DNA from: Siderastrea siderea
Lineage: Eukaryota > Cnidaria > Anthozoa > Scleractinia > Rhizangiidae
NCBI GenBank assembly: GCA_964030785.1
Contig: OZ034975.1
Coordinates: forward strand, 45,663,569 to 45,727,568
Length of the DNA stretch: 64,000 nucleotides
Direction of reading: 5' to 3'
Below the pieces are notes generated by a model. The model searched no databases. It had not been told where the DNA came from and saw only the letters and a list, made by a program, of their open reading frames with translations. Numbering within the stretch: position 1 is the stretch's first letter; the number at the start of each line of letters is the position of its first letter. Position numbers and translations under genes: made by a program. This document shows, piece by piece, positions 3,001-57,846 of the stretch.

Positions 3001-6000
3001 TTCTACCCTTTGTAGCAGGTTACCTTGTGCCATAAAAAAAACTTGTAAACGCTCGCAAAAATAGAGAAGAAAATGTACAAAACATGTGTTATCTAATACA
3101 TGGCACGCCTATAAAAGCTCCGAAGAAGAACAAAAGCAAACGGTTGTTATAAAGGAAGGAAAACCAAACGTACCAAGTTGAAAGGGCGAATACGGAAGAT
3201 GTCTACAGGATGAATTATGAAGGAAGGAAGGATGCCATATCATGAATGGATGGTCTTTAATTATATAGTGTTAATGGAAATATTGAGGTTAAAAGGCCCT
3301 AAGGTGAACAGTGAACGACTGCTATACTTAAGGTGATTTTCGTGTGTATGGCCTAAAAATATGTGTCCATTGTAATGTATAGGAGTTAAAGGGGTTATGA
3401 CACGCTATTTTAGTATCTTCTTAAAAAGCTCAAAAGTGTCTTCGCATCAATTGAATTCCAAAAATAATGGTCTAACTTTGTTATTAAAGACTATCTTACG
3501 GCAATGAACTGTTTCCTGTCGTCTGTTGCTACCGATGGCAAGGATGGAAATGGATTGAAACTTGAAAAAATTGGGCCAATTTTTTTAAGTTTTCATACTA
3601 TGTCTTCAACAATCACCAAAAATATTATTGTGGTTAGCTCTCTATGAAAAAATTCATTTGATATCTTCCTCACAGTTTTAGAGGAGTATTTTGTGTATGA
3701 GTAAAGGCACTAACTAATGAATTGAGCACAGAATTGACCCAAAATAGCAGAATCCTCGTGACATGACCCCTTTAATTAAAGGGTTTGGTCACAGGAAGAC
3801 GAAAAAAAAAACCCTTATTTACATTTTTTACGATTCTTTCAATTTCATCCCACTAATGCTGTACTCTTTGTTACAGTATAATGGCATAACTGAAAAACAA
3901 ACCGACGGCCAAAAATAGATTTTATCAGCCCCGTAGAGATCGGTAATAAATTCAAGCTTGGTTGTCGCATATTCATCTTTGACTTTGTGACATTTTGTGC
4001 ATTTTAAAAGTGTTTTAGCCATTTCCTTAACATTTATTCAATACGCAAATTCAGTAAACGACAATTTCGTAAACGAACTTGGCAGGGAAGAAAAAATAAG
4101 CTTTATAGTGTGCGCTTCAGTCGTGATAAAGGACGTACACTAAATTAAATCCTAGAATCGACAAAATAGAAGAACGGAAAATGGCGTTTTTCTTGGTGAA
4201 GACGTGAACGAACGAAAGCAAAATTTGCAGATGAATAAATCACCTCCATGTTCTTAACTCTTGGTGTTGACTCGACAAGAAAAGCCATCGATACCCCTGG
4301 AAAGAGAGCCTTGAGAAAGTTCTAACTTGACTGAGACTTTTAAAATTATACTAAATGAACAGATTTAAAGTAAACTTTAGTTATTTCTCGCCATCCTCAA
4401 AATTTTATCTACATCACTTTTGTCGCTAGTATCTTTTTAGTTATTTCTCGTTATCCTCAAAATTTTATCCACATCATTTTTGCCGCCAGTATCTTTTATA
4501 TTGAGCAAAATCTTATAAGTTACCATTGTCGCAATCTTAGAGAGTTTGAGGGTCACAGCATTATTGAATAGTCTGCTATTTCGTGTTACACGGACGTTAT
4601 ATCTGTTCTGTAATAATGAATCGATGTTATTCTGTTCTGTTTCCTTCCAGAAGCATCGATATTTTTCCTGTTTCAGGTTTCCAGAAAGTGGGAAGCAAAC
4701 TTTAAAAAAAACACCTTTCTTCGAGCCTAGAACAGGCATCGCACATTGCGGGGTGCAAAGGACAGGTGCGGGGACCGCGCAGAAAAGATATTAGGGAGCT
4801 TAAGCAACCACGACGGCAACGCCAAGGAAAACGTCGCTTTGAAAATGACTTCCAAATATTTCAAACTTCTTCGCGATAGTTTCAACTCGTTCAATCTGAC
4901 TAATGTAGCCGAACAATCCGGGAGCTGACTCTGTAAGGACGGCGTTACAGTTCAGGTAGAAAAAAGAAAATTCACTGTCGTGCGTTCACGTTCTACATAA
5001 AACTTTGAATTTGGTCATTTCACGTTGTTGTTTTGCAGAGGACGGCAAAGAAATGTACCAAAATCTGTATCGCACGTGCAGAGTCATTGTTTTGCTAATT
5101 AAACCATTTGTTTTGTGACGTTCTCGTCAGCCGTCGCCGTCGTGTTTGCTTAAGTTCCCTATTGTCAACGGGAAAACGACAAATTAAAGAAGATTCTTTT
5201 TTTAGACCCACACAATTCCGGTTGCTTGAACAAGTTATTCCCGCCCAGGAAAAATATGAAGAGCTAAATATAACTGGAGGTGCTCTATTCAAATATGTGC
5301 GGATATTTGTACGGTGCAGTGATGATTTTTGCATCTGAGAAGAAATTGTTTTTTACGTACGATTAATGGTAACGTCAAACACGTGATTAAGTTCCCCAAC
5401 AGAATTAGCCGAGGAGCACTGGTACCGACCGCTGTCTTCAGGTACAACAGCTGTTATTGTAAGTACTTGACTTCCGGTTGAGACAGAAGCCCGCTCAAAT
5501 GGTATTCGCGCCCCATGTCTAAACCACTCCACTTCCGGTTCCGGTGCACCGCCAACCAAGCAGCGCAGAGACAAAGAATCGCTTTCGTTAGCAGTTATTT
5601 TGTCCAGCGGTTTCTTTAGGAAGAAGGGAGGGACTGGGACTGGCAGAGGGGCTGGCAGAGCGAAACAAAGAGAGAAGTCGAAAGGTTAAAAGTTAACATA
5701 TGAATTCAGTAGAAGTCCTTTCGTTCTTTCGGCCGCAATTTTAAAATGTTTCACAGGACGTTTGGCGCCATGATTGCACCACTTCAAAATGACGGCAAGA
5801 AAGCGCGAAAGGACACATTAGACCTCAAAAGGCTTATTAACTGAAGGAAAGATTAGATTAGCTCCATGCGCGTACAGAAAATGAAACGGTTGAAGTCGAG
5901 CACATAGCGAATTCCGTGTCCAAACGTAAAGCTAACAAATTTATGACAACAAAGAACAGGAAGTCGAAAAGATGCACAAAGAAATCCTAAAAAGCAAAGA

Positions 6001-13764: not shown

Positions 13765-15750
13765 TCAAAAGCTATTGTTAACCAACTCATGAATATGAAA
13801 CGCGAGACCAAAGAGACGCTAGCTGCGACAAAATATTCATAGCAAGAGAACCCGGCAAATAACACGTGGACAGGTGGCTTCACGACAAGCTGGTGAAACC
13901 GAAAAAAATTTCCTTCACTGAACAGTTAGTCAGTCGCCTTACCTTACTATGAATATAGAGGGGTTATAGTGAAGTGAAGCGGATTAATCCCCAAATTGTG
14001 CATGAATCCTGTCCTTAGCTAGTATGAGCCAAATGACAAACAAGAGTTCTCTTAACTGCCGGGTCTTAACTTTTATCTTTCAATACATCTTGTACGATAA
14101 TTCAAGTTAATTCTCGCCTCAAGACTGAATTGTCTCTCAACGAACATTTCCGTGTATATTTAAGACAAAATTTTGTTTGATCAACACACTCTTCCTCGAT
14201 AGAATACGAGAAATTTCCTTCTCTTACTAGAAAATTTTACTTTATCTTGAAATCGCGTTAAGTTACTTTATTCGAAACTATATTCCCCTTCACAGTGGCA
14301 CGTCAATTTCAAATACCTTAGTAAACACGCGCTTTAATTTCCTATTATAAGGTACCTCACAGACTAGACATCGACGCCGCAGAAGACAAGCGATGAAAAA
14401 CAAGCTCGAAGTCAGCACTACTCCGTCAAAGCCCGACATGAGAGAGTCTATTGATCTCAAAGATCACATACCTCATCCCACACACTACGTTACGACCCAA
14501 CTGCCTAACGGTTCAAATGCTTGACGTGTGGCAAAGTCACTGTTCTCAGGACTAAAATCCAATTTCAGGTCGAAGAACCGAAAAGCTAGTAAGATGCATT
14601 TTACTCTTTCTACAACAAAGCCAAGCTAGGATATATTTAACGGGCTCCTTATTGTCTCTGACTGGAGTGCAAGAGCCGCCTACTATCAGAACATGTAAAC
14701 TCGTTTGAATATTAATTCTAATACATCATCTCTTGACATTTTTCTTGTGTATTGCGTGGAGTAGTTTCTGGAGGGCTTGGCAAAATAATTTTCTTCAAAA
14801 TTCAATATTTCAATGTGCAACGGAAAAACACTGCGAACACTTGTTTTTGGCCAAAACAAGCAGGCAGTGTACTCAAATATTTATTGAGCGACCACACTTT
14901 ACCTTGAGAACAGCAACATGGTAGCTGAAAAATGCGTTATGTTTGTTTAAAATATTTGCTTTATGTACACGGCCCCACAAGCTTCTTGCTTTAAATCTAA
15001 TCGTGTATAAATAAAGTTGCTTTACCTGTAACTTCACATAAATCTTTGCAACGAATTTCGTAAAACTGAACGCTAAGGCGAGATGATTGTTTGAGCGCGA
15101 GAGCGGTCGAAACATGAGTGATGATATTTGGTCGGACTTACTCACTATAACCGACTGCCATCGTTAAAGTTAGACTGTGATAACAGAGAATTCTAAAATA
15201 CATGGTAAGCTAAGAGAGGAGAAGAATTCCTCTTGAATTTGCCCAAAAACATCAGCGGAAGCTGAAAACAGTCCCAGGGGCCATTTTAGCTCGGTAGCCT
15301 TGCGAACATATAGCTCAAGCCTCTTTAGTCTGACATCCACCCCCGGCCCACCTGCGAAACCAGATTTTGATCGTCAATAGCGTGACAAGGCAATTCATTG
15401 AGTGCAAAGCTGACGTCAAGATAGCTCATTTTCCTCTATATCCGTCTAGCCTAGCCTCTAGTCTTAAACGTCAATCGTCTCTTCAACCTATCCCATGGTA
15501 GAATAGTTCAGGACCTAATATTTCAGGATATTCCGAGTTGTGTGATAGACCAGCCTAAACACGAGAAACATAGGAAAACGTTTGAAGCCTTGCATACAGA
15601 ACCGTTTTCTCCAGTCTGGTTATATTTCATGTTATTTAACCTAACAAAACATCCTGTCTGTTCAGTAGTGATACTGTACTCGACTCCCGAAGGAAAAGTA
15701 CTGGTGGTGCTTTTCACTTTGTTTTCTTCCAAAGGAGATGAAAGAATTCT

Positions 15751-15930
15751 AGAATAAACGAAAAAATAATTCTTGTCACAAGGTCTGAAAAATTTGTAAG
15801 CGAAGCTTTCGACTGTATCGCACAGTCTTCATCAGCGATTAAAGTGAGCTCACGTTGTCACGATACAGTCAAAAGCTTCGCTTACAAATTTTTCAGACCT
15901 TGTGACAAGAATTATTTTTCCGTTTATTTA
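15751..15930 (-). mobile_element. Fold-back element carrying a hammerhead-like motif
   Basis: Two arms of about 70 bp (15751-15820 and 15861-15930) are near-perfect inverted repeats around a 40-bp centre. The pairing runs from AATAAACG at the outside to GACTGTATCG / CGATACAGTC at the inside. Read on the minus strand, the left arm plus centre contains a hammerhead-type core (see 15795-15844). The right arm lacks the CTGATGA half and has AAAA in place of GAAA, so it is at best a degenerate partner. This layout matches what is known of Penelope-like element termini and retrozymes, which carry hammerhead motifs. No reverse transcriptase is present here. I found no clear target duplication. Confidence 0.65.
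15795..15844 (-). ncRNA. Hammerhead-like ribozyme motif 1
   Basis: Minus-strand order: helix I strand (15844-15836), CTGATGA core (15835-15829), an extra A, helix II GACTGT/ACAGTC (6 bp) closed by a GCGAT loop, GAAA (15810-15807), then a helix III reduced to A-U and G-C with no loop (AGCU), giving cleavage triplet CUU before C15802. Helix I pairs 15802-36, 15801-37, 15799-39, 15798-40, 15797-41 and 15795-43, with two mismatches. The conserved CUGANGA and GAAA boxes, paired helix II and compatible helix I make a real hammerhead descent likely. The extra A after the core and the weak helix III leave activity open. Confidence 0.6.
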
Positions 15931-16599
15931 CAACCAAGGTCAAGATTAACGTACATAGTCAGTTCTAGAATAGTTTCAGTCATGAATCGCTTTTCGAAAT
16001 ATCCAGTGGCACATTTCGTGGAGGATGTCTTCATTTTTGTGAACATGATGAATGGTGCTTAGTACTTGACCATTTTCTCATCGTTTATTGTTATTTACTT
16101 ATTAATCAGATCGCGCTACACAATTCTGTCAGACCATGTACCTTACAATTTGTCAACTCATGAAAGAAACTTTTGTCAGTCAAAAATACACTGCACTACA
16201 CCTAAGGATAATGGAATTTTGAACGGAGGTGTGCTGGTAGCACTCAATACTGCAGCCTGTGCTCTTCCGGCTCTTTTACGCCTGAATCCTACCTTTATGC
16301 GGTGAAATCACCGAGAACCAGGCTTCGCGCGAACAGGGAGAACAGGGAGAATCCTGACCAGCCTAACCGTAAAGTGATCTAAAATCTTTCCCCCTTTCGA
16401 TACCAAAACAGCAAAAATATGTGCCTTATCAGGCAGTCATGCAGAGAAAACATAACCGTTCTTATTTCCTGACCGAAACATTCAAAATCCATGTATCAAA
16501 TCCATTGGCCACACGTACCTATACGTGTGTGGCTTATCCTGGGCTTATGTAAGGGGAAAAATATACGGGATGACTGATCCTTACGACAATTAAAGAAAG

Positions 16600-16800
16600 A
16601 CACAGAGGACGAAATAAATAAATAAAAATTATGCAACAAAAAATTGCCCGATGTTTCGGTTTGCAAAACAAACCTTCTTCAGGGGCTACAGGAGTAAAAT
16701 GAGTAAATACGTTACAGGACCGTTAACATGGAAGATGAAACATTTAAAATACATGTGAAACTATTAAACCGCTAAAAAGAATTCTCAACTTTGAGGAGGG
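16600..16800 (-). mobile_element. Penelope-like terminal remnant (probable)
   Basis: A short AT-rich segment built around a second hammerhead-like motif (16646-16686), flanked by ATAAATAAATAAAA-type sequence at 16614-16628. There is no reverse transcriptase nearby. The family is inferred only from the ribozyme-like motif and its reduced helix III; borders are approximate. Confidence 0.45.
16646..16686 (-). ncRNA. Hammerhead-like ribozyme motif 2
   Basis: Minus-strand order: helix I GCCC (16686-16683), CTGAAGA core (16682-16676), an extra A, helix II GGTTTG/CAAACC (6 bp) with a short T-rich loop, GAAA (16657-16654), CAT, then C16650 and helix I partner GGGC (16649-16646). Helix I is a perfect 4-bp pairing. 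Helix III would be A-U plus a C-A mismatch with zero loop. If the ancestor had GAAACGUC, a single CpG-to-CA change explains the mismatch. The architecture, including the extra A, matches motif 1. Confidence 0.6.
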
Positions 16801-19573
16801 TTTAGTTTTCGGATATCCCTTAAAAGTGTAATTTAAGTAATAAGAATGATTAAAATAATCCCTTCACTCGCAACAAGCTGCGGTTTTAGACATTTCAGAA
16901 AAAAAGGTTCTTACTTCTCAGAACTGAATAATTCACCAGTTTTGAGTAAACAAATACCTTAATAGATTAGGCTCTCCAACTGTCCAATTCGAAAGTCTTT
17001 CACCCCAAATAACAGTGTCCGAAAATACAACTTTAAGAGTTCTGGTTCTAAGTGTGTCTAGCGTGCATGTGTAATTTCATGACAACAATTGTTCCACAAA
17101 CCGATTCCAACCGAATATCACAGCAAGAGAAACATTTTTCTGAAACCGCATAACGTGGGTTCATTCATGCGGTTTTCCACTAGTTCACCCACATGGTTTA
17201 TCAGTGCATGATCGTCTGCGAAACTTTTCAATCTTCTTATAACAATTCTAATGGCTAAAACGTCGAAGTTGTTGTATTATTTGTTTTATACTAGTCGACT
17301 TATAATTTGTTCAACTCCGGAAAGCTAATTAAAATGAATTCAGTGAATCTAACATCAGTTGATACTTATCGGAATTCAGTTCTCATATCCATTCAGCTGT
17401 CCATTGACTCTTTGTGAAAACAATTTGCCTTGAGTAATCTTGAATGCAGTAATGTTGATTTCAAGGTCGGAAAAAACAAACAATTTTTCGCAGTAGTGTG
17501 TGCAAAATATTCTTGTCTTTAAGCTGAAGCCGAGAGCTAAAAACAAATCTATAGATACAGTAAAACTTCATATAGTCTCCCGGAATGTATGGTTAGTATG
17601 ACAGGTCATTGTTTATATTACGTTTTACATTTTCTAGATTGTAGTTGTACAACATTAAAACAAAAGCCTTTAAAAAAAGAATTTCTTACCTTAAAGACTC
17701 GGGCTAAATTCCGTGGAACTCAAATCACTGTTGAGAGAAACAAAACAGGCAGTGTTTATAATCAGATTATAATGGCGACGCAGACATTTTGAAGAAGATC
17801 AATGCTAATATTTTATGAGTTCAGTGCCGTTTCGTTTTCGGTCAAAATGTGGGCTTGATATACAATTTGAAGAACCATTTTTTTGGCGACATCAGTTACT
17901 TACCATTAAGCCGACAGCTTCAGCTAAAAGCTGCGAGATTCTAGCATTACATGAACGAAACGAAACAGCACACTTGGAGCAAAAAGAAATGAAAACGGAA
18001 AAAAAGAGAATAGATTAATTCGCGATCGGGAAATACAGAAGACGCCACTCAGCATGCTGTGAATTTCATCCAGCCGAGTCAAAATAAAACTCATTAGCAT
18101 GAGTCAAAAGATTTGGTAAATAAATATCGAAATATAACCATGGATTTTCAAAATCCCCATGAAAGCAAAGCCATCAAAAAACACGAAGCCATGAAAATGC
18201 ACGCACGTGTACTCTCAAAATTAATGTTGAACTGTACACAAGTTGAAAATGACTTGACTCAAATTCTACAACCCGGGATATGAATATTTCATTTAATGAG
18301 CTATTTTCGTTTTAGAATCAAAATTTACTATCTATTCAATTTTTCGGTTGTTTTCGTTGTTGTTAGTTAATTATAGCTCAACACGAGAAAGGAATTGCAA
18401 CTTTCGGTAAAAAACAAATGAATGAAAAATACGTTGAGCTACCATAGCTATCACTGAGTCATATTAATTAATATTGTTAATTCTCCAATCTTTACAAGCA
18501 CTCCGAATACAGCTGAGAAGAATCATTAGAAAAACATTCGAAAAAAAAATTACCAGACCTTAATTTAGTCCACATGGAATCGTCAATTTAACTTTCCAAT
18601 GGCGTCCTTGTTTTACTTAGTGGTTTTCGTGAAGTTCTCAAGTTTTAATACTAGAAGAAATATTGATAAATACACCGTCATTTTGAAGAAGGTATGCAAC
18701 AATATCTTAATGGTTAAAAGTGTTGGTAGACACTGTTATTTTCTGCATATTTTTCTTGCAGTTTAAATGATGATTAAATCATTAGCTCAACAAGAAACAA
18801 TACGTTTGTGTTGTTTATACTTTTTCTGTTAATGAAACACAGAGAGGTTGACTGAATAGGCCCGGTAATATGGATGGACCCGAAGGATTTGAAATCAAAG
18901 GAGAACATTTTGCCGTTTCGGACACTTTAGCAATTCACCTGTATAAGGGTTTTGAGGCCATTGTACTCCGTCTACTTTTTTATTGACACATTCGTTAATA
19001 TATGATAACGAGTTACATTGTGGTACAAAGCGTTTTCTGTTTACCTTTAAAAAACCCGGCCCCTGAAAACTACCCGTGAAAGAAAAGCTGGCCTGTTTTG
19101 GCATAAAATAAACAACTTACCGTTACTACTGAAGGAACTTCGGAATATCAGTTCGTAAAGGAAAGTGGTTCTGCCTTTTCCAATCAGTCAATTGTAGAAT
19201 TTCTATCCTGAATCACCGCTTTTTTTTTTGTTGAATCAGTTGTCGGGAGCACAATGAACACGTATATCCGTAGAGGAATACTGAACCCAAAATTCTTTTC
19301 CAGTCTATTTTAGTCGAGTACGGCCTATTCCACAATCACAGCACTAACAAAACCGGTGCCAAAACATTTCAGTCTCAACAAGCTTGTCACTGTTTACTGA
19401 GATTCTAAAGCAAGAGAGGTACAGAATTTTTAACATGTTCTGCCGCGTCTGTAGCTGAAAATCTGTACCGCCGCGTTTGCAGCCGAAAATCTCAAAACCT
19501 TTGCTTTCCCTCAACAAAAATTTAGTCCGTTGAACAAGTGGTTAAAGCGCAAACACCGGCATACTTATTTACT

Positions 19574-19673
19574 AAAAGCCAATTGCAAGGCTGATCGGAC
19601 AGCTAAGAAGGGTAATTTAAACATGTTAAAATTACCCTTCTTAGCTGTCCGATCAGCCTTGCAATTGGCTTTT
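19574..19673. repeat. Perfect 45-bp inverted repeat (long hairpin)
   Basis: Left arm 19574-19618 and right arm 19629-19673 are exact reverse complements, separated by 10 nt. The arms start AAAAGCCAATTGCAAGG. As RNA this would form a 45-bp hairpin without mismatch. It could be a small fold-back transposon or a hairpin RNA precursor; the lack of any mismatch suggests recent origin. Confidence 0.85.
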
Positions 19674-19786
19674 TGTTTTATTCAACATTGCTCATCCTGA
19701 TCTACACCAAGATCTGGCTTCACCTCGCTACTGTTTGTCCAAGTGGTCCTTGCATCGAGTTACGTAATACTTATTTACTCGCTGTT

Positions 19787-28100: not shown

Positions 28101-29381
28101 AGGATTTTTTACGCAGAAAATCAGTGACAAACGTGTAGAGAATATTTCTGGATACCACCTGAAATGAGAAAAGATTCAAGCATGCAGCATATTTTGGTAC
28201 ATGACAACCTCGTTGCGTTCTAATTCTGAATTTTCATTCAGTTTCAGCTCAGACAGAGCAATTATGTACAATACTGGAACCTTCAAGTTAGCAATCATGT
28301 AAATTTGAGCGCTAGTGCCTAGAAGATGTATTGTAGCCTGTGATTTTCTCATTTTTTGCCGACATTTGCGTGACTTTTTGCAAATTGCTGTTATGGGAAA
28401 TTTGCATACCGAGTATGGAGGCAGAAGAAATTTTGATTGGCTGTTTTGTTGAGTGTCAATCAATCAAAAAAGTGGGCCGTAGACGTTCCGTAGAAGAGTT
28501 GTATCAGGCTCTATTTTTCATTTCGCCCCCTGAACGTTTCACTGAGCCAAACGAAAATAGAACCTGATCGCAGGTTATTGTTGACATAAAAACAAGATGG
28601 ATTACAAAACCCCTGGTAGAAATCCTATACAGGATCCTACCGGATTTTCTAGGATCCTACAGGATACTGTAATCCTACCCAGGATCCTAAATGGCACCAT
28701 GTTTTTTAAGATCCCACTCAGGATCCTGTAAAGTCTTTCAGGATCCTGCTTAAGATTGTCTAGGATCCTGTTTAGGATCCTATAGGATCTTGTTTAGGAT
28801 CCTATAGGATCTTAAACAGGATCCTAAATAAGATCCTATAGGATCCTGGGCAGAATTTCTACCAGGGACGATGGAAGACATGGCTCGATATTACAACGTG
28901 AATTGCAAGCACAGTAAGGATACACATAAACAGTAAGTACGCGTCCTTGAAGTACCTTCGCTCATACGCAAAATGCTCCTAAAACGCCAAAAGAAAGATA
29001 TCAAGCGAATTTGTTTCAGGTTTTCGTTTAATGTAAAACTTATAAACTCGAAGTGTTTGTAAACTGAATAGCTGACATTTAATACATCTCCCTTTAAGCG
29101 GAGACATAACCCTGCTATAACTTCGCTTCTAGGCAAGATGTAACAACCAAATTTACAAGCTCTGTTATTTTTAAAGTGCTGTTTCCAGAAGAATGGCTAG
29201 AACAAGATCAGATTGGTAAAAACCACGAGATGGCAGGTCTCTTGACAATCAATATAAGCTTATTTGGAAGCTAGTCAATTCGTACCTGTAAAAAGAGCTC
29301 CCACAGGATTTCTTCTGTTACACGGGATTCAAGGTTTCCTACAAAAACACAGCGTTCATCGCGTTCGACAAAAGTAGCCAT
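25157..29381 (-). CDS. RBM7: RBM7 orthologue, RNA-binding subunit of the NEXT complex
   Basis: Two exons: 29381-29286 (ATG, 32 codons) and 25657-25157 (166 residues plus TAA), joined in phase 0 to give 198 residues. One RRM spans about residues 9-85. RNP2 is CVFVGNL in exon 1, and RNP1-like KSYGFVSF is in exon 2. The junction reads LFLQ-AGPLEAVHIPKDK, which is the RBM7/RBM11 signature as I know it, followed by LYGRPI. The tail is rich in S, P, N, G and Y with SPS and SPR motifs and ends RPYYS, like the low-complexity tail of RBM7. In animals RBM7 joins ZCCHC8 and MTR4 to send promoter-upstream and other short-lived nuclear transcripts to the exosome. The 3.6-kb intron contains a large inverted-repeat element and a GGATCC-rich element. 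Human RBM7 is longer in the tail; I see no frameshift. Confidence 0.92.
25790..27194. mobile_element. 1.4-kb non-autonomous element with AATCGATT-rich termini
   Basis: The left end (CGGGACGTGAACAATC at 25790) and the reverse complement of the right end (CAGGATGTGAACAATC at 27194) are inverted repeats. Inside both ends are many variants of CAATCGAT and its complement (about 25800-25900 and 27000-27180), resembling subterminal transposase-binding repeats. The interior has no long open frame. Flanks share TAATA-like sequence but I cannot fix a target duplication. Confidence 0.6.
28611..28867. mobile_element. AGGATCCT-repeat inverted element
   Basis: Terminal inverted repeats CCCTGGTAGAAAT (left) and ATTTCTACCAGGG (right) enclose about 230 bp built almost wholly from the palindrome AGGATCCT or near matches, spaced 10-20 bp apart. 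No coding capacity and no clear target duplication. It can fold into several alternative hairpins. Confidence 0.75.
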
Positions 29382-32130: not shown

Positions 32131-48609
<16,479 letters not shown>

Positions 48610-48952: not shown

Positions 48953-51900
48953 ATGGAGGAATCCACGGGCAAGGAAGAAGAGCTACAGAAATTTCTCGGA
49001 AAAGTCGACGAAATTGGTAGGCAATTTTTCTTTAAGTGACAGCCTGATTTCTGTTTTACAGTAGCAGGCATTGTTGGAGCGATGATAACAGCTCTTTGTT
49101 TCAAATCATCTGAAGCTTTTATATTTGTGATGTTTCTATGTAACCAGTTTGCTAGTAAGCTTATTAAGCTTAATTTATCTTACCTGATCGTCGAAATGCT
49201 TGCTCAAATACCTTAATTTCAATAAATTTTTGAGAGTTTAAAGGCACATTGTTTTGGTTTGAGCATTGTTTCGTTTTTTCTAAGGCACGAAAGTGTATTT
49301 TTAGACCATATTATATTGTAAACTCAGTTTTTGTTTTTATTTTCCATGTTCATTTATGGCAATATGAGCTGTGCTTACGATAGTGAGCCAGTTTAGTTAG
49401 ATTCATGGTCTACATTCCACAAGTCACAACTAAAATTCACTGTGTTGCAAATATGTAAAACAAACTAGACAGTGTCCCTTGGCCTTCTTGATGATGTTTT
49501 AGCCTGATTTAGTTAGAGATAGGGGCGACTGTTTAGCTTGTTTATATATTGGTAGCACAGTGACCTGTAATTGTGATCAGTGGACCTGTAAAGAAGACCA
49601 GCTGGGATGACTGATACACTGACAAAGGTAACCAGACTGACACAATGAACTAAACTGGGACAGTTTTATTGTTTGCACTTGCATATATAGCAAGAAGTAA
49701 TAGGTCATTTCCGAATTGCTTCTTGCCTCCCTATCAAAACAAGGATAGGTGCACAACCTTTCATATGAAAATGAGTTTTTATTTCCATGTAAATAAGACC
49801 AATTTTCGTATGAAAGGATGTGCACTTAGCTTTGCTTTAATGAGGAAGTTGAAGACAATTTGGAAATGGCTTGTTCTGTTTCTAAAATTTCCCAGATTCA
49901 TCATGAATCAGGAATGCTGGGTTCTGTATAGGCTCAGTCTCCAGCCGTGAGTGTCTCGATGCACCCGCGATTCTCGCCACCTTCACGGCTGGGCGCACGG
50001 GTTTGATTGCATGTCCGTGATGTCATTACAATTTTAATAATTATGCAGACAATCCACATGTCATTTGCTTAAATTCTATCTGTCTTTTTTTTCTATCGTC
50101 TTGAAGAAAAGCGAAATGCGAAAAGTATGCCTGAAACGTCATCCTAAAAGTGTGAAATTTCAAGAGAAAGACGAAATCCCGCTAAATTATGTCGCGCATT
50201 CTGCCCCGCAAATTTCAGGGGGCTTGTCTCTGATTGGTCAGTCTACACAATAACCAAACCCGTGCGCCCAGCCGTGAAGGTGGCGAGAATCGCGGGCGCA
50301 TCGAGACACTTTCTTCTGGAGACTGAGCCTAGGTTCTGTAGTACTCCCTTAGCAACCAATTGCTTCCTTAGTAACCAATCAAACCCTTTATTACAGACTC
50401 TATTATGAAAGATCTGACATGCGGTGACCTGGAAAGACAGAATAAAGCACTCAATGCAGCAGATGAGTTTTTGAGGCAACACAAAGCAGAAAATGGTGAA
50501 GATTCTGATGATGAATGCAAAACCAAGTCTGACAGAACAGTTATTTCTAAAGGCAATGAAAAAAGAAGGCTGGATCCTTCTACTGCTCTTGGTCAAATGG
50601 TAAGGTTGCTTACCATTGGGATCTGCACTGCATGCCTCCCCACCCCAACATTCTGGGATCTACCCCCTCCCCTTGACAGGGTTAAGAATCAAGAATGCTA
50701 ATATTCCAAACATCACAGTCAATAGGTGTAAGTGACATGTGCCCCTTATTGGTGCATTTTAGCTTTTTATCATGGATAGAGGTTTTTCTTCGGGTACTCC
50801 GGTTTTCTTCTCTCCTCAAAAACCAACACTTCCAAATTCCAATTAGATCCAGAACGCACAAACACATCTTAATGAGTTTCTGAGCTCCTAAGTGTTTTGT
50901 GGTTAGACAAATTACATTTTACATTTTTTTTACACTAGGCCTGAATTAGCTCTTCTGGGCTTGTTATAGGTTTAAAAGAAACACTTGTTGTTAAAGCATG
51001 TATCATTCACTTTGCACTAGATGTGGTGGTACTTCTCACAATTTGCATTATACATTTTTAAATCAAGAAATATTGTCTAATGACATACATGTATCTGCGT
51101 TTTTAAGAAGTAGGATGATAGGCCTGTGTGACTCCCACATGTTTCAGCCATTCTTATAATTTGTGCTCACCAGTATATATCAACACCTACTCTATGTTTT
51201 AATCGTTTGCTGCTTTTTATCTTGATCTTTCAACCAGTGTAGTCTATTGTATGTATGTATGGCATATTTGGTGTAGTTCTGAGGAATAAATGTATTCTGA
51301 AGTGAGCTGTTCATTTAAATGTTGCATGATTGTTCTTTATTTTTCTCATTTTAACACTGTTACAGTTAATATTATTTAACAATTTTCTAAACTTTTTTTA
51401 AAATTTTTATTGTTAGCGGGAAGCAGGTGAAGTTTGTGCTGGTAAGTAGTAATTTAACATGTCAACTATGTATGTTTATAGTACAATGCTAAATTTTGGC
51501 GTGCTCCCATTGGTCAAAATCGATCACGTGATGCAATAGTGTCTCTCCTCAGCGGGCACCTATCAGCGAATAGTGCCCGTCTTGTCAATTTTCGCTAAAA
51601 ATTTAGTGTCATACAATAAAAACAATAGAGTTCTTCTGTCTCAGGCCCTATGTGTGATAGGTTCCCTCAGAAATTTGATGTTCAAACTTCATATGAACCC
51701 TCGAACTACGTTCTCGGGCTAATATTTGTTGTGAACATCAAATTTCCTCGGGCAACCTATCACACGATAGTGCCTTCGACAGAAGAACTCTATTGTCTAA
51801 ATATACAGTATAGTCTCGCATCATGGTTAAACATAGACCAACACTTCCCCTGGAATAACAGACTTATTTTTATTTTATTTTTTCTTGGCAGAACAGTTTA

Positions 51901-54900: not shown

Positions 54901-57846
54901 TGCAAGAATCCAGTTGTGTGGTCTTAGAAATTTTAGTAATGTTCTGATTTTATCATAATTACAGGCTGTGAACTTAGCTGGGCAAGGAAATGGAGAGTTA
55001 ATAAAAGACTCAATCAATAGACTACAAAATAGCAACCTTGCTACATCGCAGTACGTTGAAGCAACAAGAACACTAGTCACCCTTCTTGATAGCAGTAAGT
55101 TAATGTGAAATGCGGTATAAATGTCTGTGTCTTTGTAAACTAATCCCCACCTGAAAACGTCTCATTTTTTATAAATGTTTTCTCATTTCTATTGTTGCAT
55201 TGCAGATGCCAATAAAACATTATTTAGATGTTATGGAGGTTTCCAGGTTACAGATTCTAATAAATCATTTAAAAAGTAAGTACAGTAGTAATATTCATTG
55301 TGTGAAGACAGTGCCAAACACTTTGGTTTCCTTTTCTTGTGGTTTTGTCTCACATCTGGTTGGTAGCTACCCAACTGGAAATGTCAAAATCAAATTTGGT
55401 TGTGTTAAGGATGGTGCCTTCATTTGTTACTGTGCATATGTTTTGTGCATCTAAGGATATTCGGGTTTCTTAAGGAATTTGCCTCCTAGTACGACAATAT
55501 TTTTGCGCAGCTTATGACTATGTGGAAAAGAAGATCTTAGCAAGGGCTATCAGAATCCAAAAAGAAAACTGGGGGTGACCATGCATTTTTGAGAGATAAT
55601 TGAGCTTAAATTTGGAAAGAAATTGCCATACATTCTTTGTATTTTAACACGTTCTTGGAATTATGGTTGCTTAATTACCTCTGAAAAATGCATGGTTACC
55701 CACATTTTTCTTTTTGGATTCCAATAACTCTTGCTAAGATCTACTTTTTCCTCATAGTACATGTCTATTAGAAGGCACTGTCCTCAAGAGCTTTTTGAAT
55801 TAGTAAACCAAGTGAGTAAGGATGACTATGAGGGTGTCAGTGCCATTATTTTTTTAATCCTGCGTAGGTATTGGGAAGGACCAGATGTATGCATCATGCT
55901 GGAAGATATTGACTTTGTCTGTGAAGTAATACGGATACTAATGGAAGCCTGTACTGATAATGGTAAGTAATGAGAAATCGTGTTTGTTGATTTTCATCCT
56001 GTTGCTGGATTATGATGCCCAAACTAATTACTCTGTAAGTGTCAATTACACAAACTAGCAATATCACTAATACGTCAATCAGTGACAAGCAATAAGAGGT
56101 CAATAAAGAAGTTATCTAAATTGAATTTTTAGACACATTCAAACAGGTGTCTTAGTTTGCCCATGAGTCTTTTAGTTAGTTAGTTGTTAAGTCATTATTG
56201 GTCAGTCAGTTTTTAGTTCGTAGTTGCTATAGCAACTGAGAACTATTGGGGCTGTCCTGGCATCGTGTGGAGTTGCGTTAACTCTTTGGCAACAAGCCCA
56301 CACAGCCATTCAAAGTAGAATCCTTCGAAGTGTATAAATGGGCGAGTTGTGACGGGCTCTTAACCAAGTTTTGCGCTGTCGCTGTGGATGAAGAATTAAT
56401 CAGAGTGTTTGGATCCTCGAAAATACCGTAGATTTTGATTTGCAAAGACAGTGCAGGAAGGAATCGGAAGGAAATGTTTACTCAGGCGCGTGTTAGGACT
56501 CGTTGGTCTTCAGTTTAGGTTGGCGTTCGCCAGCGGGTTAGGAACAGCTGGACGAGGAAAGAAATTGGTTAAGTTTAGTTGCTGTCGAAAAGATTGCAAA
56601 GAAGTCTTTGTGTGTTGATGTTTCTGATCTGCAAGTGCAAACATTTCTTTATGCATAAGTTGACTGGGGGAGATAATTGGTCATAATTAATAAATAAAGT
56701 CCACGAAACGCGATTGTGTACGTTTTCATTTGGTACGGGTTAAAGTTATAAACTATCAAAAATCATGCACATCATGATCTTACAGAAGTTCAAGGGTTTA
56801 TTTACAGCTTTCAGTTTGAGTTTTATGCGGTTTACTTTGAGCTTATATATATCTTGCTCGGAATTATCGGCCAGTCGACGGCCAGTCAGGATTTCCCCCG
56901 TACCCGCGTAATTAATAAATTAAATATTCCATGCATCATTGCCGTCATTGAGCTCTCCAGAATCGACCGTTATTGAAGTGTTTTTGGTTTCTGTAGTTCA
57001 TGTCAGTTTAATTTCGTAGTTCCCACAGTTGAATGTATTCGTGGAACAACCTTATGACATTGATCTGACGATTTAACTCGTTATTCTGAACTTCCCAAAT
57101 GATGTTTGTCCATTGATGATTACCAGAAGGATTCTTGAAATCCTTCTCATTTAGCTGCAAAAATGTTTTCTGTTGTCTTTCACTTAGCCTTTTAAAATGA
57201 GCTAATTCATGAGCTTTTCCTGGCACGAAAAGCTATTTAAATTTGATTTTCATAATTCAATTAGTACAATGTTTACATACGTGCAATGTTGGCATTTCTG
57301 ACACGAAAGTGTAATCGTCAATCTCAATTTTTTAAATAATCTCAAACAACTTATATACACGCAAAAACTAGCCCAACGTCTGTTTCTCTTTAATTATGTA
57401 AGTATTCTTAGTTCTGCACTAATTCTATTATTACAAAAGAAAAACACACGATTCTCCAGACTTATGATCATATTTCTTTTCAAATGCGAGACTACTTTTT
57501 CTAAACCTGTCATTTGTGGTCTCCCCGTTATTCTTTAATTTTGAGCTGCCTGTTACCCATTTAATGGTGACGCTCTCTATCATGCAACCACATCCTGCTC
57601 CTGATAACCCACTGATATACACTGAACAATAAAGACAGCGGAGGCAAAACAGTAGTAACATCTAACTGTAAAAACAACTGCGAACTATCCGAACGGATCC
57701 GCTCGTTGGTCAACTGGTCAGTCACTGGGTCTGTTGGTCAGTTAGTTTGTTGATTACTTATTACATAATACTGTTCAATCAGTTTGTCAAGCATTCATTT
57801 CATCAATCTGTCAGCAAGTTAGACTGTCAATGAATCAGTGAGTCAG

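What the first reader, a model, noticed from the sequence alone, without database searches (positions are those of the whole stretch)
15795..15844. Hammerhead-like ribozyme inside one arm of a fold-back element
On the minus strand the sequence has CTGATGA, a 6-bp helix II with a 5-nt loop, GAAA, a zero-loop two-pair helix III giving triplet CUU, and helix I with six of eight pairs. Seen directly: the boxes and pairings. Established: hammerheads occur in Penelope-like elements and in retrozymes, often with very short helix III that may act as a dimer. Inference: this fold-back is a retrozyme-like or Penelope-derived copy that may still self-cleave or be circularised. No reverse transcriptase is adjacent.
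Basis: partly seen in the sequence, partly recalled or inferred. Interest (0 to 1): 0.8.

Follow-up and report, generated by a model that had tools for sequence, protein, structure and literature searches.

The report
Penelope retroelement copy carrying minimal hammerhead
The hammerhead-like motif is real: it is the small ribozyme of a Penelope-like retrotransposon family, here in a tiny head-to-head insertion in a coral-like genome that holds thousands of similar motifs, so it is a new member of a known kind.

Summary
Rfam finds no hammerhead there. A covariance model built from eight other motifs of the same genome, without either window motif, ranks 16694-16638 first (E 3.8e-6) and this one second (E 0.015). 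The genome has 2785 matches to one minimal-hammerhead pattern, against 1 for the reversed pattern. The fold-back (15757-15962) is an insertion of a GIY-YIG Penelope-like element (PLE): 10-bp target duplication, two tail-out cDNA arms, one with the 35-nt PLE tail. Exactly one tailed end is seen in 29 of 31 fold-back loci examined. So "Penelope-derived" is right; "retrozyme-like, circularised" has no support. Of 84 family ends found, 73 carry a full-length hammerhead across the cut and none seen ends exactly at it, so the copied RNAs were mostly uncut. Four ends stop 6-9 nt beyond the cut; unexplained. In this copy a long hairpin (-116.5 kcal/mol) should lock the ribozyme away. No activity was tested.

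The parts
15747..15756 (.). left target-site duplication TTCTAGAATA
   Evidence: exact 10-nt direct repeat with 15963-15972
15757..15862 (-). tail-less PLE cDNA arm, element sense on the minus strand, holding the whole hammerhead
   Evidence: aligned with family ends
15791..15847 (-). minimal hammerhead motif; predicted cut between 15803 and 15802
   Evidence: covariance model built without it, 18.2 bits, E 0.015; descriptor
15861..15962 (+). tailed PLE cDNA arm, element sense on the plus strand; stops inside helix II's loop, so only the 3' half of the hammerhead, with GAAA changed to AAAA
15926..15960 (+). 35-nt PLE tail extension
   Evidence: 34 of 35 matches to the family tail
15963..15972 (.). 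right target-site duplication TTCTAGAATA
16638..16694 (-). second minimal hammerhead, of another family; not part of this insertion
   Evidence: covariance model 29.8 bits, E 3.8e-6

Best explanation
15757-15962 is a 206-bp, heavily 5'-truncated insertion of a Penelope-like element with a GIY-YIG endonuclease. Shown: the element carries its own minimal type I hammerhead about 45-85 nt before (in element sense) the points where its inserted copies end; insertions of this family are mostly two cDNA arms joined head-to-head, tail-out, between target duplications, with the tail at one end only. Inferred: the endonuclease makes a staggered cut, each strand primes reverse transcription of element RNA at one of two internal start sites (one gives the tailed end, the other the tail-less end), and the two cDNAs are joined where they stop. 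Inferred: the ribozyme works poorly alone, because helix III is a zero-loop AGCU, and needs a second copy paired through that palindrome, or the element's protein. RNA cut at this hammerhead was not the usual template. In this copy the arms should fold on each other and keep the ribozyme inactive.
For: PLE coding sequence in longer copies (1499 relatives at E <= 1e-20). Exactly one tailed end in 24 of 26 loci and in 5 more. Direct repeats of 9 nt or more in 23 of 26. Compensatory change in all 6 tested pairs of eight motif families. Model search. 2785 pattern matches against 1 control. 73 of 84 ends with the hammerhead intact in length. Hairpin -116.5 kcal/mol. PMC11167929 (main-text section): a PLE protein cuts and extends both strands, starts at two internal sites, the tail is the stretch between them, and unprocessed RNA is the main substrate.
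Against: PMC11167929 saw no difference of start site between strands in vitro, which does not predict a one-tail rule. The two arms of an element share source variants more often than shuffled arms do (18 both, 13 one only; null mean 8.1, P about 0.001, some columns linked), which also fits one cDNA folding back. Four ends lie 6-9 nt beyond the cut, which could be trimmed products of cleaved RNA. The model score of this motif alone is modest (E 0.015). MFE folding of the isolated motif keeps helix II but not hammerhead helices I or III, and 110 of 200 shuffles fold as well.
Confidence: 0.85

Rival explanations
1. Same PLE, but the head-to-head form arises by self-priming of one cDNA or from an antisense template, not by priming on both target strands.
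For: PMC3846280 (passages) argues for self-priming from palindromes at inverted junctions. Several junctions here lie at or near the palindrome GTGAGCTCAC just upstream of the hammerhead, and arms share source variants.
Against: The arms have independent lengths, up to about 2.4 kb against 0.17 kb, and a single cDNA copied back on itself does not explain why one end has the tail and the other does not. Arms of one element differ from each other about as much as from arms of other elements, although a burst of insertions would give that too.
Confidence: 0.35
2. Retrozyme: a small non-autonomous element that moves through self-cleaved circular RNA.
For: Metazoan retrozymes carry type I hammerheads and occur in a coral (PMC7229834 passages).
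Against: No tandem neighbours within 5 kb, 25 of 25 pairs divergent; PLE coding sequence between the arms; no helix III stem; ends lie beyond the cut, not at it.
Confidence: 0.02
3. Palindromic DNA transposon (MITE) with a hammerhead-like stretch by chance.
For: The window has several other palindromic elements.
Against: PLE coding sequence inside longer copies, variable inner ends, one-sided tail, duplications of variable length, and helix-preserving differences between motif families.
Confidence: 0.01

Closest known systems
Minimal type I hammerheads of Penelope-like elements (Cervera and de la Pena 2014; Lunse, Weinberg and Breaker 2017: neither held, known here from recall, reference lists and passages of PMC7761336 and PMC6155905)
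   Same: Hammerhead core with almost no helix III, in the terminal region of a GIY-YIG PLE, thousands per metazoan genome; may self-cleave as dimers
   Different: Helix III palindrome is AGCU, not the ACGU of most families here; an unpaired A after CTGATGA, in all ten families listed here, but six were found with a pattern that demands it. An extra nucleotide at this spot is known in a viroid hammerhead (title in a reference list; details recalled)
Poseidon of Anolis carolinensis, PAc (PMC11167929, main-text section read)
   Same: GIY-YIG PLE with hammerhead before the RT start sites; tail is the stretch between two start sites
   Different: Here the two kinds of end go one to each side of an insertion in 29 of 31 loci; in PAc no strand difference of start site was seen in vitro
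Penelope elements of Adineta vaga (PMC3846280, passages)
   Same: Inverted pseudo-LTRs, 8-10-bp target duplications, a 31-bp tail optionally at one of the inverted pseudo-LTRs, palindromes at junctions
   Different: Here direct repeats are mostly 10-15 nt and no direct-tandem neighbours within 5 kb were seen; that paper's text has no hit for 'hammerhead'
Metazoan retrozymes (PMC7229834, passages)
   Same: Type I hammerheads in animal mobile elements, including a coral with more than 6000 motifs, most of them minimal PLE-like ones
   Different: Retrozymes are 150-450-bp tandem repeats with canonical hammerheads; this is a PLE fragment

Membership tests
Penelope-like element | reverse transcriptase joined to GIY-YIG endonuclease | tested here: met
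   In copies L129 and L139: GIY-YIG above its cut-off (25.8 and 23.7 bits against 22.6); RVT_1 at E about 3e-5 but below its cut-off (24.2 and 24.3 against 29.6); homologs with RVT_1, PF26215 and GIY-YIG. The window copy itself has no coding part.
Penelope-like element | target-site duplication, inverted terminal pieces and an optional tail of 30-40 bp | tested here: met
   compared with PMC3846280 and PMC11167929
Penelope-like element | tandem or partial-tandem copies with direct pseudo-LTRs | tested here: not met
   All 25 family neighbour pairs within 5 kb are divergent. Read as a family habit, not as exclusion: PMC3846280 describes inverted pseudo-LTRs too. Larger or unassembled tandems were not tested.
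Hammerhead ribozyme, minimal type I | CUGANGA and GAAA boxes with NUH cleavage triplet | tested here: met
   family columns
Hammerhead ribozyme, minimal type I | helices I and II conserved as structure | tested here: met
   eight other families: 89.6% of cells paired, shuffles 54.1%. In this motif helix II is complete and helix I has a C-U mismatch at its third pair.
Hammerhead ribozyme, minimal type I | match to a curated Rfam hammerhead model | tested here: not met
   both window motifs are missed although a model from this genome finds them
Hammerhead ribozyme, minimal type I | self-cleavage | not testable with these tools
   no bench work; genomic ends give no exact footprint
Retrozyme | short tandem repeats with canonical type I hammerheads | tested here: not met
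Retrozyme | circular RNA intermediate | not testable with these tools
   no RNA data

The most novel reading that the evidence does not exclude
Every insertion of this PLE family uses both reverse-transcription start sites, one on each target strand, so the integration complex is strand-asymmetric by design (one-tail rule, 29 of 31 loci), and a minority of templates are hammerhead-cleaved RNAs whose cDNA loses 6-9 nt before joining (4 of 84 ends).
Probability: 0.2. Interest if true: 0.55.

Novelty: new member of a known kind. Interest (0 to 1): 0.33.

Why it matters
The role of the hammerhead in Penelope-like elements is called a mystery in PMC7761336 (passages). A genome with thousands of such motifs lets one ask from cDNA ends alone whether cleaved RNA ever serves as template. 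In this small family the answer is mostly no. The one-tail rule constrains how these elements insert. The locus itself is ordinary.

Tried and rejected
Rfam: nothing at the curated cut-offs; weak hits are to microRNA, bacterial RNA and snoRNA models, all below their cut-offs, the strongest caused by the long hairpin. Viral-contig pattern scans gave 0, 39 and 81 stretches; helix II of 4 or more pairs was found in 4 of 39 (shuffles 1.4) and 5 of 81 (shuffles 2.6), several being one sequence repeated; dropped as comparatives. Pfam on three minus-strand frames of 14001-18500: none; the plus strand there was not scanned. The DNA-transposon reading, which the paired inverted matches suggested, was dropped. 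A script stopped with an error after its first tables and was redone. Full-length 5' ends (query L129:1400-1760), counts of AGCTT-type motifs and of motifs without the extra A did not complete. Not in the 31-locus count, because one-armed, interrupted, decayed or with an end missing: L151-L153, L157, L160-L163, L197, L199, L201-L203 (L142, L143 and L145-L148 are shorter fetches of loci fetched again as L158-L163). L140/L141 share flanks and duplication, L194/L195 share breakpoints, so about 29 of the 31 are independent.

Full report
OBSERVATION. The minus strand at 15847-15791 has the parts described: CTGATGA, helix II, GAAA, a zero-loop AGCT, CTT, and helix I with 6 of 8 pairs. It also has an unpaired A between CTGATGA and helix II. 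Sequence simulated from the window's make-up gives 0.028 cores with helix II of 5 or more pairs per window; a looser descriptor gives 0.37. The window has two, both on the minus strand and both with the extra A; the second is 16694-16638. Rfam models match neither as a hammerhead.

GENOME COPIES. The window lies in an 831-Mb assembly. A host exon matches an RBM7-like protein; among the rows that carry a name the relatives are stony corals (Orbicella 41%, Oculina 47%); the higher-scoring rows are unnamed. I take the host to be a cnidarian, probably an anthozoan; the species is not known. A search with 15600-16100 gave 94 matches, 40 of 73 candidates scored, many as inverted pairs. Twenty loci were fetched first. 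Longer ones hold sequence between the arms that codes for reverse transcriptase and GIY-YIG endonuclease, with 1499 relatives at E <= 1e-20, of which 120 were listed. The fold-back is therefore a Penelope-like element.

ANATOMY. Aligned ends and direct-repeat searches show that insertions are bounded by a direct repeat, 9 nt or more in 23 of 26 loci (four of these with one mismatch; one, L155, inside a trinucleotide repeat). At one end a 35-nt extension precedes the arm. Of 26 fold-back loci 24 have exactly one tailed end, none has two, and two score as tail-less at both ends; of these L150 has a degraded tail by BLAST and L158 a partial one by eye (there as L142). Five more loci have one (L194 with L204, L195, L196, L198, L200). 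In the window the tail-less end is left and the tailed end right, with TTCTAGAATA on both sides. The inner parts are two cDNA arms of independent length that in most loci abut within a few nucleotides; L135, L138, L150 and L155 have gaps of 12-50 nt. All 25 family neighbour pairs within 5 kb are divergent. In the first 100 listed places of the larger hammerhead pattern, 11 of 14 such pairs are divergent too.

THE HAMMERHEAD IS A FAMILY FEATURE. Its 33-base core has 76 copies with up to 3 mismatches, 38 of them exact, control 0. In 33 copies of equal length, of 38 full ones, the boxes carry scattered single changes only; a few loci were fetched twice, so these are not all independent. The pattern CTGANGAAG...CGAAACGTC has 1365 + 1420 matches, control 0 + 1. 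Eight motifs of different helix II sequence, none from the window, show changes on both sides in all six pairs tested: 19 such cells against 6.4 in shuffles (0 of 500 as high), and sliding the partners removes it. Two of the eight (L149, L159) were picked by a descriptor that demands helix II, and the pattern fixes the first helix II pair of the other six; in those six the next three pairs hold in 17 of 18 (6 of 18 when slid by one; 17 of 5000 shuffles as high). Helix I, demanded of none, holds in 24 of 30 pairs across ten families including both window motifs, shuffles 12.3. A model from the eight ranks the window motifs first and second, E 3.8e-6 for 16694-16638 and 0.015 for this one; the third, 32517-32578, has E 3.2. 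Eight of ten families have a self-complementary tetranucleotide at helix III: AGCU here, ACGU in seven; the second window motif has ACAU and L149 ACGC. Such a tetranucleotide would let two copies share a helix III; that minimal PLE hammerheads may work as dimers is stated in PMC7761336 (passages).

DOES CLEAVAGE SHOW IN THE GENOME? The inserted copies end beyond the cut in element sense. A template cut at this hammerhead would give an arm whose inner end is at the cut. A tail-side pattern with up to 2 mismatches finds 84 ends; more divergent ends, and arms that stop before this stretch, are missed. Of the 84, 73 have the hammerhead core (up to 3 mismatches) beside them. I read the other 11: two carry the motif with a deletion (L122 right arm, L201), one is interrupted (C9:11601348, L204), two are an older decayed subfamily (L202, L203), two end inside the motif (window right arm, L141), and four (L197-L200) end 6-9 nt on the 3' side of the cut. 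None ends at it. The four lie in an AT-rich stretch with the palindrome AAATTT, so microhomology joining explains them as well as trimmed run-off from cleaved RNA would. By my reading about 13 of 50 inner ends of 25 loci fall within about 27 nt upstream of CTGATGA, near the palindrome GTGAGCTCAC; eight of these come from four short loci that the search with the window's own short copy favoured. BLAST ends are good to a few bases only. PMC11167929 (main-text section) found unprocessed RNA to be the main substrate and a hammerhead that cut only with protein.

ONE TEMPLATE OR TWO? Arms of one element differ from each other about as much as from arms of other elements. Variants seen in three or more elements are shared by both arms more often than in shuffles (18 both, 13 in one arm; null mean 8.1, P about 0.001; some columns linked). 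So both arms tend to come from one source or subfamily. This does not decide between priming on both strands and fold-back of one cDNA; the one-sided tail and unequal arms favour the former.

THIS COPY. The full fold-back RNA is predicted at -116.5 kcal/mol with its arms paired, z -19.4; the isolated motif at -10.1, with helix II but not hammerhead helices I and III, and 110 of 200 shuffles fold as well. The second window motif folds with both helices (-15.5, 9 of 200 shuffles). The 3' half of the ribozyme lies in the long duplex, so I expect little cleavage from this locus. The left arm is identical over 110 nt to two other places and to a third over 108, and the duplication is exact, so the insertion looks fairly young; it was not dated.

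WHAT IS NOT SETTLED. Whether both strands prime or one cDNA folds back; whether the ribozyme cleaves; what the four near-cut ends mean; the 5' end of full-length copies. I do not claim that the tail at one end is new: PMC3846280 (passages) describes a tail optionally present at one of the inverted pseudo-LTRs. Whether the strictness seen here is in print was searched only, in one open-licence library.

Noticed in passing
window 16638-16694 (minus): Second minimal hammerhead of another family, better model score than the given one (E 3.8e-6), with helix I GCCC/GGGC; helix III reads ACAU where most families have ACGU.
   Followed up: partly
window 38111-42927: LTR retrotransposon with a 1394-aa open frame (RT, RNase H, integrase) and 192-bp terminal repeats 99.5% identical, so probably young; related pieces lie inverted at 3382-3775.
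   Followed up: no
window 35790-36269, 19571-19676, 55517-55758, 51622-51796, 28719-28848, 49929-50331: Other inverted repeats or palindromic elements, apparently unrelated to the PLE.
   Followed up: no
L149 614-667 (minus), L159 1119-1169 (plus): Two further minimal hammerheads found by chance in flanking DNA, both with the extra A.
   Followed up: partly
L197-L200: Four PLE arms end 6-9 nt beyond the predicted ribozyme cut: trimmed run-off or AT microhomology.
   Followed up: partly
L202, L203: Older, divergent subfamily of the same element (about 73-74% identical over the hammerhead region).
   Followed up: no
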